Assembly: GCA_031286325.1 (NCBI GenBank)
Contig: JAITUT010000068.1
Location: 1 to 34,205 of the forward strand
Length of the DNA: 34,205 nt
Direction: 5' to 3'
From: Helicobacteraceae bacterium
GTDB lineage: Bacteria > Campylobacterota > Campylobacteria > Campylobacterales > SZUA-545
In this document: positions 1-31,379 of the stretch, piece after piece
Position numbering within the stretch: the stretch's first letter is position 1
How the letters are laid out: every line of letters starts with the position of its first letter
Translations under genes and position numbers: made by a program
The notes under the pieces: generated by a model
Told to the model about the DNA's origin: nothing
Databases searched by the model: none
What the model saw: only the letters and a program-made list of their open reading frames with translations

Positions 1-167
1 CGTCCCCTCAGGGAGAGGAGGGGTTTGTGATATTCAAGGGGGTTTGGGTCGGGTCGCGCCCCCCCCCCCCCCCCCCCCCCCCCGTCGCCTGCCCCGCAAG
101 CGATCAGCGAAAACCCAACTATCGCCGCAAGAGCGATATTCCTGAAAAGCTGATTAGCCTTTTTCAT
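1..167 (-). CDS. N-terminus of a probable phase-variable lipoprotein (runs off the left edge)
   Basis: On the minus strand an ATG at 165-167 follows AAGGAG (174-179) with a 6-base gap. The product opens with a lipoprotein signal: K2, K3, R9, a hydrophobic stretch, and the lipobox LIAC with the lipidated Cys at residue 24. Four residues later the DNA enters an uninterrupted run of 25 G, giving eight Gly codons, and the frame stays open to the window edge. With 24 G the frame would stop at TGA 8-10, and with 26 G at TGA 34-36, so only tract lengths congruent with 25 keep it open. This is the layout of a contingency gene as known in Campylobacter and Helicobacter. The mature part lies outside the window, so its function is unknown. 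The residues after the tract do not resemble anything I know. Confidence 0.68.
   Translation of the reverse strand, partial: MKKANQLFRNIALAAIVGFSLIACGAGDGGGGGGGGARPDPNPLEYHKPLLSLRG
59..83. repeat. Homopolymeric C tract (25 C on +, 25 G on the coding strand)
   Basis: Twenty-five consecutive C residues. Long G/C tracts are the usual substrate of slipped-strand mispairing in Campylobacterota. This one sits just after the lipobox codons of the minus-strand gene, so a one-base change would switch translation of the mature lipoprotein. The exact length is also what sequencing and assembly most often get wrong, so the ON/OFF state read here is tentative. Confidence 0.9.
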
Positions 168-251
168 ACAAAACTCCTTTTTGCGGAAGCGCGCCGCAAA
201 CTTAATGTTTTGGAAACTTCGCGTATGTGTAACGTACACATATTTTTCCCT

Positions 252-285: not shown

Positions 286-296
286 AGTCGTATTTA

Positions 297-477
297 ACTT
301 CTCGCGGGAGCAAAGCTTTTGCCTGTTTGGAAACCCACGAAAATCTTTGGGTGTTTCGCTCGCGCTTAAAAAGTTGCGATTTTCGCCCGTTGCGGAATCG
401 GGCGAACGCGGTTCGCCCCTACATATACGCTTGCGGCGATCGCGGCGGGAATAATAGGTTTTATTTGGGTTTTTTAC
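297..477 (+). repeat. Dispersed intergenic repeat R1, copy 1
   Basis: This block reappears inverted at 14391-14588 and in part at 12787-12862. Bases 416-472 match the reverse complement of 14392-14448 at all 57 positions, and the flanking sequence matches in long blocks (for example CGCCCGTTGCGGAATC). It begins near a hairpin-like CTCGCGGGAGC and ends near TTTATTTGGG. Because it contains few stops, the repeat creates spurious open frames on both strands. It fills most of the 168-524 gap, which has no other gene that I can support. Confidence 0.85.
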
Positions 478-1472: not shown

Positions 1473-1504
1473 CGCGGATCGCGGATCGCAAGCGGTTTAA
1501 AGCT

Positions 1505-1510
1505 TATAAT
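1505..1510 (+). promoter_or_regulatory. Possible -10 element upstream of moaA
   Basis: A perfect TATAAT lies 71 bases before the moaA start in the short gap after the lipoprotein gene. No good -35 hexamer sits 16-18 bases upstream, which is common for sigma-70 promoters in Campylobacterota. The assignment rests on the hexamer and its position only. Confidence 0.4.
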
Positions 1511-1581
1511 TCACGCCGCGATCCTAGCGGCGAAAGACCTTTGCTCGCGAGAGAAAACTAAAAGCTAAAATTAGGCGAATA

Positions 1582-2547
1582 ATGCTTACGGATCAATTTA
1601 ACCGCATAGTAGATTACCTGCGCGTCTCCGTTACTGAGCGTTGCAACTTTCGTTGTCTTTACTGTATGCCCGACAAGCCTTTAAGCTGGGTGCCGCACGA
1701 ACAGATTTTGCGCTATGAAGAGTTGTTTTTGTTCGTCAAAGCCGCGATCGAGCTCGGCGTAAAAAAAGTGCGGATTACGGGCGGCGAACCCACCGTCAGA
1801 GGCGGCTTGGAGCGCTTTATAAAGATGATCGCCGATTTTGCGCCCGAAGTTGATCTGGCGATGACGACAAACGGGTTTTTAATGGCTGATCTCGCGGCGA
1901 AATTCAAAGCGGCGGGGCTAAAACGCGCCAACATTTCGCTTGATTCTTTGCGGCGCGAAACGGCGGGCAAAATCGCTAACAGAGATGTGTTAGATCGCGT
2001 GATCGCGGGGATTGAAGCCTCGATCGCATCGGGGCTCGAAGTGAAAATTAACTGCGTGCCGATCAAACGAATGAACGAGGACGAGCTAGGCGCGATTGTG
2101 AGTTGGTGCCTAGCGCGCGGAGTAACGGCGCGGTTTATTGAGTATATGGAAAATTCCCACGCCAATCGCCATTTACACGGCTTGCGCAAAGAGGAAATTC
2201 TTGCCGAGATCGCGAAAATTCACGATTTCACGCCGCTAGAATCGCCCGCGAAAAGCCCGGCTAAGTATTTCGCGATCAAAACGGGCGGCGAATTTGGCAT
2301 TATTGAGCCGCACTCCGAGGAGTTTTGCAAAACCTGCAACCGCGTGAGATTGAGCGCGCAAGGATTGCTCGCGCCGTGTCTATATTTTGACGAGGCGATG
2401 AGCGTTAAAGAGGCTTCCAGAGCGGGCGACACAGCGAAAATGGTTGAGATTTTGCGATCGGTACTCGCGGGCAAACGCGAGAAAAACCGCTGGAATCACG
2501 GCGAGTTCAAAGAGAGCGATCGCGCTTTCTATGAGACCGGCGGCTAA
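1582..2547 (+). CDS. moaA: GTP 3',8-cyclase MoaA (molybdenum cofactor biosynthesis)
   Basis: Radical SAM enzyme that, with MoaC, turns GTP into cyclic pyranopterin monophosphate, the first step of molybdopterin synthesis. Residues C21, C25 and C28 form the CxxxCxxC radical-SAM cluster motif, and GGEPTVR is the SAM-binding GGE motif. The second [4Fe-4S] cluster is held by C249, C252 and C266 (Cx2Cx13C). The protein ends in the conserved Gly-Gly. Length 321 is normal. No other moa, mog or moe gene is near, so the pathway must be scattered. recR follows after 19 bases and may be cotranscribed. Confidence 0.96.
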   Translation: MLTDQFNRIVDYLRVSVTERCNFRCLYCMPDKPLSWVPHEQILRYEELFLFVKAAIELGVKKVRITGGEPTVRGGLERFIKMIADFAPEVDLAMTTNGFLMADLAAKFKAAGLKRANISLDSLRRETAGKIANRDVLDRVIAGIEASIASGLEVKINCVPIKRMNEDELGAIVSWCLARGVTARFIEYMENSHANRHLHGLRKEEILAEIAKIHDFTPLESPAKSPAKYFAIKTGGEFGIIEPHSEEFCKTCNRVRLSAQGLLAPCLYFDEAMSVKEASRAGDTAKMVEILRSVLAGKREKNRWNHGEFKESDRAFYETGG

Positions 2548-10081: not shown

Positions 10082-11140
10082 ATGGGAATTTTAGTCGCGA
10101 TTTTGGTGCTTTCTGTATTGATCGTAATCCACGAATTAGGGCATTTTCTGGCGGCGAGGCTAATGGGCGTAACCGTCGAGGTATTTTCGCTGGGCTTCGG
10201 CAAACGGCTTTGGGCGAAGAAAATCGGCGCGACCGAGTGGCGCGTGAGCGCGTTTTGGATCGGCGGCTATGTACAGATGAAAGGGCAAAACGACGCCGAT
10301 CCAACGGCGCGCAGCGGCGAGCCTGACGCTTATGATTCCAAAAAGCCGTGGCGGAGAATTTTTATACTTTTCGCGGGTCCGTTCGCGAACTTTGTTCTTG
10401 CCTTTTTCTTGTTTCTTTGGGCGGCTTTGATCGGCTACGAAACTCTTGCCCCCGTGATCGGCAAAATAATGCCTGATTCGCCCGCCGAAAAAGCGGGTTT
10501 GATCGTAGGCGATCGCGTGATCGCGATTAACAAATCTCCTATTGCGAGTTGGAACGAGCTAAGCGACACAATCAGGGCGAGCGAGGGCGAAGTTGAGTTG
10601 CTGGTGGATCGCGCGGGCGAAAAATTAACGTTGATCTTAAAGCCCGAACTCGCCGAAAGCCAAAACATCTTCGGCGAAAAAGAGCAGCGCAAAATGATCG
10701 GAATTTCGCCAAGCGGCGCGTTTGTGGCGCAGAGTTTCAACATAAGCGGCGCGATAGCCGAAGCGTGGGATCGCACAATCTTCGCCAGCACGATAATTTT
10801 CCAAAGCGTCATTAAGTTAATTTCGGGCGCGATCAGCCCCGACAACGTCGGCGGCGTTATCACGATCGTGGATCTGACGTCCAAAGCGAGCGAGATAGGG
10901 ATCGCCGCGCTCTTGATGTTCAGCGCGTTAATCTCCGTAAATCTTGGCGTCTTAAACTTGCTGCCGATTCCAGCGTTAGACGGCGGGCACATAATGTTCA
11001 ACATTTACGAGCAGATCGCGCGCCGCGCCCCCAGCGAAAAGGCGCTCTACCGAATGACCTACGCGGGTTGGGTCGTCTTGGGCGCGTTAATGCTTTTGGG
11101 ACTCTACAACGACATTGCGCGCCTTACAGGCAAGGGCTGA
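10082..11140 (+). CDS. rseP: RseP-family site-2 intramembrane metalloprotease
   Basis: A 352-residue zinc protease of family M50B that cleaves transmembrane regulators and leftover signal peptides in the inner membrane. The first membrane segment carries HELGH (17-21). GGYVQMKG and the PDZ domain (about 120-200, with SPAEKAGLIVGDRVIAIN) follow, and the third catalytic ligand is in PIPALDGGH (D300). One PDZ domain and this short length are typical of Campylobacterota, whereas E. coli RseP has two. It diverges from the efflux operon across 72 bases that must hold both promoters. The YggS gene follows after one base. Confidence 0.95.
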   Translation: MGILVAILVLSVLIVIHELGHFLAARLMGVTVEVFSLGFGKRLWAKKIGATEWRVSAFWIGGYVQMKGQNDADPTARSGEPDAYDSKKPWRRIFILFAGPFANFVLAFFLFLWAALIGYETLAPVIGKIMPDSPAEKAGLIVGDRVIAINKSPIASWNELSDTIRASEGEVELLVDRAGEKLTLILKPELAESQNIFGEKEQRKMIGISPSGAFVAQSFNISGAIAEAWDRTIFASTIIFQSVIKLISGAISPDNVGGVITIVDLTSKASEIGIAALLMFSALISVNLGVLNLLPIPALDGGHIMFNIYEQIARRAPSEKALYRMTYAGWVVLGALMLLGLYNDIARLTGKG

Positions 11141-31129: not shown

Positions 31130-31379
31130 GTTCAGGGAGGCGAAAAGCGATAGTTTTTTGGGCGAAGAGTCTTTGAAGCTAGCGAAGATTAGCGCCAAAA
31201 TCGAGGAGCTAAACAAGCGCGGAAACGGCGTGTTCGGGACGCTAGACAATGTAGTCTTGGACGATGCGAATGGCGCGGCGCAAAATGTCCTGAACGACAG
31301 CGAGGTTTCGCGCGCTTTGAGCGCGATTTCGGCTCTGCAAGAGAGGATCGCCTACCTGCGTTCAATTGCGGCGAAGTGA
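31119..31379 (+). CDS. Small unknown protein coupled to the basic protein
   Basis: An 86-residue protein with GAAGGA ahead of an ATG that lies inside the end of the preceding gene. It is predicted helical, with Asp/Asn- and Ala-rich stretches (VVLDDANGAAQNVLNDSEV) and a C-terminal amphipathic helix (ISALQERIAYLRSI). No signal peptide, membrane segment or known motif. The overlap implies a stoichiometric partner of the 98-residue protein. Confidence 0.6.
   Translation: MIGEFREAKSDSFLGEESLKLAKISAKIEELNKRGNGVFGTLDNVVLDDANGAAQNVLNDSEVSRALSAISALQERIAYLRSIAAK

What the first reader, a model, noticed from the sequence alone, without database searches (positions are those of the whole stretch)
1..167. 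Poly-G switch placed directly behind a lipobox
A 25-base G tract begins four codons after the lipid-attachment Cys. The current length keeps the frame open to the window edge, while one base fewer or more gives stops at 8-10 or 34-36. The switch would turn off the mature lipoprotein while leaving a short lipidated peptide, and it encodes a polyglycine linker whose length varies in 3-base steps, so length as well as ON/OFF state may change.
Basis: partly seen in the sequence, partly recalled or inferred. Interest (0 to 1): 0.72.

Follow-up and report, generated by a model that had tools for sequence, protein, structure and literature searches.

The report
Poly-G switch in a surface-type lipoprotein

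Summary
The lipobox and the 25-G tract directly behind it are real (minus strand, window 59-167). The 58 bases past the tract (window 1-58) are not usable. They are an error-ridden tail at a contig end, as at other poly-G contig ends in this assembly; two sibling contig pairs show the pattern clearly. The window's true partner is very probably the right end of contig C14, supported by tail matching in both directions, paralogy and partial synteny. There the gene continues open for 313 codons.

The gene is therefore a ~350-residue lipoprotein: signal peptide, Cys-GAGD, polyglycine, then a predicted seven-bladed beta-propeller. Full length needs n = 2 mod 3. The other two phases stop 0 or 5 codons past the tract, not at window 8-10 or 34-36. 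With 25 the gene would be OFF, but assembled lengths disagree (25 against 41), so the state is unknown.

The layout recurs: three lipoprotein genes here, and tracts behind lipobox-like heads in four same-genus genomes. In two of those, orthologous genes bridged within contigs carry G16 and G17. The mechanism is ordinary slipped-strand translational phase variation, as in neisserial hpuA. Length change of the polyglycine tether is a plausible, untested side effect.

The parts
84..167 (-). 5' end of the lipoprotein gene: signal peptide, lipobox LIAC and first mature residues (MKKANQLFRNIALAAIVGFSLIACGAGD)
   Evidence: translation; paralogous head on contig C90, 86-87% DNA identity
96..98 (-). 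codon of the lipid-attachment cysteine (TGC)
   Evidence: reading of the sequence
59..83 (-). poly-G tract, 25 as assembled; true length uncertain because C14, very probably the other end of the same gene, says 41
1..58 (-). unreliable contig-end tail: a corrupted copy of the DNA behind the tract (best match C14 from position 31306 downwards)
174..179 (-). ribosome-binding site AAGGAG, 6 bases before the ATG
   Evidence: reading of the sequence
168..249 (-). upstream region conserved with the paralog on C90; carries the inverted repeat TGTGTA-N3-TACACA at 226-240
   Evidence: 86% identity over window 70-249

Best explanation
This is the 5' end of a contingency (phase-variable) gene for a lipoprotein. 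An N-terminal signal peptide and lipobox are followed by Cys-GAGD, a poly-G tract of changing length, and a body that is predicted to fold as a seven-bladed beta-propeller and lies on contig C14. Slipped-strand mispairing at the tract changes n during replication. n = 2 mod 3 gives the full lipoprotein. n = 0 gives an immediate TGA and n = 1 gives five codons and a TAA, so only a lipidated stub of roughly 13-18 residues could be made. Steps of three bases keep the gene ON but change the number of tether glycines. Shown here: lipobox, tract, open body, short OFF frames, recurrence in paralogs and same-genus genomes, purifying selection on the body. Well supported but not proven: the C13-C14 join. 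Inferred: slippage in the living population, surface exposure, stub production, and the role (binding a host, protist or bacterial partner, with switching as bet-hedging).
For: Lipobox and tract. Contig tails are garbled copies of the true downstream DNA: C90/C76 z=16, C79/C29 z=14. C13 tail to C14 body is the best of 8 candidates (1.8e-4 of positions score as well); the reverse tail of C14 to the C13 head is the best of 5 (2.5e-3). C14 and C76 bodies are 61% identical, as expected for partners of the paralogous C13 and C90 heads. The C14 body is open for 313 codons only in frame +1, with quick stops in the others. dN/dS 0.35 between the bodies, 10-17 stops in alternative frames. AlphaFold2 pLDDT 85.6, pTM 0.86, seven repeats of beta-strands; best PDB folds are YCF48 propellers, TM about 0.7. 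Treponema homolog L087 has lipobox IVGC, a Gly/Asn-rich linker and the same repeats without a tract. Lipobox-plus-11-G pattern: 3 tracts here, reversed-pattern control 0. G005 and G006 orthologous lipoproteins have bridged G16 and G17 tracts and open 251- and 233-codon bodies. All 7 genomes of the genus carry 22-48 runs of 11 or more G.
Against: No reads were available, so no length polymorphism within one population was seen. The C13-C14 join rests on a weak individual alignment (naive z=2.2). C76's reverse tail fits the C13 head slightly better than its own C90 head, so reverse tails discriminate poorly between the two similar heads. Synteny is only partial: SDR lies near rseP in two relatives, but the pgsA between them was not found in the window or the other contigs fetched. 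Neither assembled length is trustworthy, so the ON/OFF state is unknown.
Confidence: 0.8

Rival explanations
1. The tract is a sequencing or assembly artefact (for example dark-cycle poly-G calls) and no long homopolymer exists in the genome.
For: Tracts at contig ends are longer (14-47) than bridged ones (9-18), and the post-tract tails are full of errors.
Against: The tails return to real downstream DNA after the tract (C90 to C76 z=16, C79 to C29 z=14), which an artefactual read end would not do. Orthologous genes in G005 and G006 have tracts bridged inside contigs. Many tracts of 9-18 are bridged in this genome too. The artefact affects length and the far side, not existence.
Confidence: 0.05
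2. The tract is real but works mainly as a coding polyglycine tether whose length drifts; switching is an unselected by-product.
For: The Treponema homolog has a Gly/Asn-rich linker at the same place without a homopolymer, so a flexible linker is useful there in any case.
Against: A tether needs only mixed glycine codons; pure G tracts are kept behind lipoboxes in several unrelated lipoproteins and in other gene types of this genus. Two of three lengths switch the gene OFF, a heavy cost if only the linker mattered.
Confidence: 0.1
3. One reading: n=25 is ON and the protein continues ARPDPNPLEYHKPLLSLRG into unseen sequence.
For: The window as written is open to its edge.
Against: The 58 bases fit a corrupted copy of C14's body start, and every comparable contig end whose partner was found with confidence carries a corrupted tail.
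Confidence: 0.03

Closest known systems
hpuA of Neisseria (haemoglobin-haptoglobin receptor lipoprotein with in-frame poly-G tract; PMC3786947, PMC3352162)
   Same: A lipoprotein gene with a poly-G tract in its reading frame; slipped-strand translational switching; one tract length in three is ON (lengths 7-19 reported).
   Different: Body is a TbpB-like barrel fold, partner of HpuB; here a predicted beta-propeller with no TonB partner seen. That the hpuA tract also lies right behind the lipobox is my recollection and was not checked in sequence.
SSR phasomes of Campylobacter (PMC6321876)
   Same: Many poly-G/C tracts per genome, most inside reading frames.
   Different: There 9-10 G is the mode and 13-15 rare; here bridged tracts reach 18. 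The cited paper's text does not mention lipoproteins.
Spirochaete lipoproteins with the same WTAV/KMAYS propeller (L086, L087)
   Same: Lipoprotein signal peptide and the same repeats, 53 and 49% identity.
   Different: No poly-G tract.
YCF48-type seven-bladed propellers (PDB 2xbg, 5ojp)
   Same: Predicted fold, TM about 0.70-0.74.
   Different: Only 14-17% identity; a photosystem II assembly factor; no functional link claimed.

Membership tests
Simple-sequence-repeat contingency locus (translational phase variation) | Hypermutable-length repeat inside or at the start of a reading frame | tested here: met
   G25/G41 tract between lipobox and body
Simple-sequence-repeat contingency locus (translational phase variation) | One phase gives a long product, the others early stops | tested here: met
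   313 codons against 0 and 5 on the C14 sequence; conditional on the C13-C14 join, but met independently by C90/C76 and C79/C29
Simple-sequence-repeat contingency locus (translational phase variation) | Tract length varies between cells or strains | tested here: inconclusive
   Orthologs in G005 and G006 have G16 and G17, but these are different species; length disagreement between contig ends may be technical
Simple-sequence-repeat contingency locus (translational phase variation) | Expression switches reversibly | not testable with these tools
   needs reads, reporter or antibody
Bacterial lipoprotein | Signal peptide with lipobox [LVI][ASTVI][GAS]C | tested here: met
   LIAC at residue 24; consensus as given in PMC7857515
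Bacterial lipoprotein | Lipidation and surface exposure | not testable with these tools
   needs experiment
Seven-bladed beta-propeller | Seven repeats of four-stranded blades in a ring | tested here: met
   AlphaFold2 model, pLDDT 85.6, pTM 0.86, and Foldseek matches to seven-bladed propellers; a prediction, not a solved structure
HpuA / Slam-dependent surface lipoproteins | TbpB-like barrel and handle fold | tested here: not met
   body predicted as a propeller

The most novel reading that the evidence does not exclude
Placing the hypermutable tract exactly between the lipid anchor and the body may be a repeated design in this genus. It would give two outputs from one repeat: ON/OFF switching by single-base steps, and a tether of changing length (how far the body stands off the membrane) by three-base steps, with an OFF state that still exports a small lipopeptide.
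Probability: 0.2. Interest if true: 0.6.

Novelty: new member of a known kind. Interest (0 to 1): 0.38.

Why it matters
It adds a predicted beta-propeller lipoprotein to the list of phase-variable surface-type proteins, in a genus with a large set of unusually long poly-G tracts. The repeated placement right behind lipoboxes makes a simple idea testable: whether such tracts tune the length of a membrane tether as well as switching the gene. It also gives a practical warning. In draft genomes, the bases just past a long poly-G at a contig end can be a corrupted copy of real DNA, and frames should not be read through them.

Tried and rejected
A first lipobox pattern had one N too many and missed the window's own site; it was rerun correctly, and the wrong version serves only as a rough off-register control (10 of 200 genomes). 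Several hits did not translate into convincing lipoproteins (G107, G003, G002:C246) and are not counted. A promoter/signal-peptide match in G002 is a chance match in a reading frame of another gene. A sequence search of the PDB gave only chance-level hits; the fold comparison was needed. Synteny by the redoxin (tpx-like) gene failed because most same-genus genomes lack it. A paper search for phase variation with polyglycine and lipoprotein gave nothing. The third body copy on C74 is a decayed fragment with a stop and no tract.

Full report
Observation. The window's minus strand starts a gene at 167: MKKANQLFRNIALAAIVGFSLIACGAGD, then 25 G (window 59-83). A nine-base G run is expected 0.03 times in the window by chance.

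The far side of the tract. The window is the left end of contig C13 of a 2.05 Mb, 96-contig draft genome. The genome has 26 listed runs of nine or more G, many within about 100 bases of a contig end. At such ends the sequence past the tract is a degraded copy of DNA found clean on another contig. C90 (a paralog of the window's head, then G14) has a tail that matches the start of C76's body at z = 16; C79 (another lipoprotein head, then G21) matches C29's body at z = 14. Of 169 tail positions in those two pairs, 32 are wrong, often equal to a neighbouring base, as expected from loss of phase after a homopolymer (inference).

The partner of the window. With a scoring model that allows such errors, the window's 58-base tail fits the start of the body on C14 far better than the seven other candidates; 1.8e-4 of 224,802 positions score as well. 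In the other direction, C14's own tail fits the window's head best of five (2.5e-3). The plain alignment alone is weak (z = 2.2). Independent support: C14's body is a 61% identical paralog of C76's body, and the heads C13 and C90 are paralogs too. In two same-genus genomes (G004, G005) the SDR gene at the end of C14 lies about 2 kb from the ortholog of rseP (window 10082-11140), in the orientation that a C14-C13 join predicts. The pgsA gene between them in G004 was not found in the window or the other fetched contigs, so synteny is partial.

Frames. On C14 the body is open for 313 codons in frame +1 only. With the head in place this needs n = 2 mod 3. n = 0 ends at once with TGA; n = 1 adds V-T-R-P-I and stops. 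C90/C76 and C79/C29 also need n = 2 mod 3. The assembled lengths of the three genes disagree between their two ends (25 and 41, 14 and 36, 21 and 47), so no ON/OFF state should be read from them.

The protein. The body carries repeats such as KMAYSSDGVNWTAVSNSTFG and ends GKMWYSTGL. Pfam gives only sub-threshold matches for it, and DUF6242 above threshold for its paralog. AlphaFold2 gives pLDDT 85.6, pTM 0.86 and seven sets of strands; the best solved folds are YCF48 seven-bladed propellers, TM 0.70-0.74. dN/dS between the C14 and C76 bodies is 0.35, so the frame is kept as protein. Homologs occur in a Treponema MAG and a Spirochaetaceae MAG and more distantly in a Bacteroidia record. The Treponema one is a lipoprotein with a Gly/Asn-rich linker and no tract. 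Of 150 relatives only one of another family shows a weak match, so the body looks lineage-specific or acquired (inference).

Recurrence. All seven genomes of the genus have 22-48 runs of 11 or more G. The lipobox-plus-tract pattern finds three tracts here and hits in several same-genus genomes; the reversed control finds none. Translation supports lipoprotein heads in G001, G002:C60, G005 and G006. G005 and G006 carry orthologous lipoproteins with tracts bridged inside contigs (G16, G17) and open bodies of 251 and 233 codons; both are OFF as assembled. G187, of another family, has FNACGSS-G13 and a frame open for 499 codons to the edge of the locus read.

Mechanism and known kinds. The best reading is slipped-strand translational phase variation of a lipoprotein. 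Neisserial hpuA is the closest described case: a lipoprotein with a poly-G tract of 7-19 in its frame, ON at one length in three. Whether its tract is also right behind the lipobox I recall but did not verify. Campylobacter tracts are mostly 9-10 G, shorter than the bridged 12-18 common here. Tether-length variation follows from the code but has no direct evidence here.

Limits. That the host genome is Campylobacterota from an insect gut is an inference from the gene content and the MAG homologs and was not tested.

Noticed in passing
window 293-472: An interspersed repeat with tens of further copies in the genome (most at 75-97% identity), containing the palindromic stretch GGGCGAACGCGGTTCGCCC; a copy also follows the C14 body.
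   Followed up: partly
L043, L046, L050, L055 (contigs C10, C16, C24, C32): A second family of tract genes: poly-C right after a start such as MATILSKIADRDQVKG, followed by long open frames of 161-242 codons in the C sense; looks like another phase-variable family.
   Followed up: partly
L057 (contig C49, G17): A frame open for 476 codons behind the tract begins KKKTENMIIQGDNLEALKALLPFYA, which looks like a DNA methyltransferase; a possible phase-variable methylation gene.
   Followed up: no
L052 (contig C26, G15): Tract inside a frame reading VYVIFALGESVRADHLKALGYDRDTTPNLSALKNEG, which resembles a phosphoethanolamine transferase.
   Followed up: no
L071 and L069 (contigs C79, C29): A third lipoprotein whose tract follows the Cys codon directly (TLAGC-Gn), with a 332-codon body that matches no Pfam family.
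   Followed up: partly
L082, about 1498-1866, minus strand (contig C74): A decayed third copy of the propeller body with an internal stop and no tract.
   Followed up: yes
window 226-240: Inverted repeat TGTGTA-N3-TACACA upstream of the gene, conserved with one change at the C90 paralog; could be an operator.
   Followed up: no
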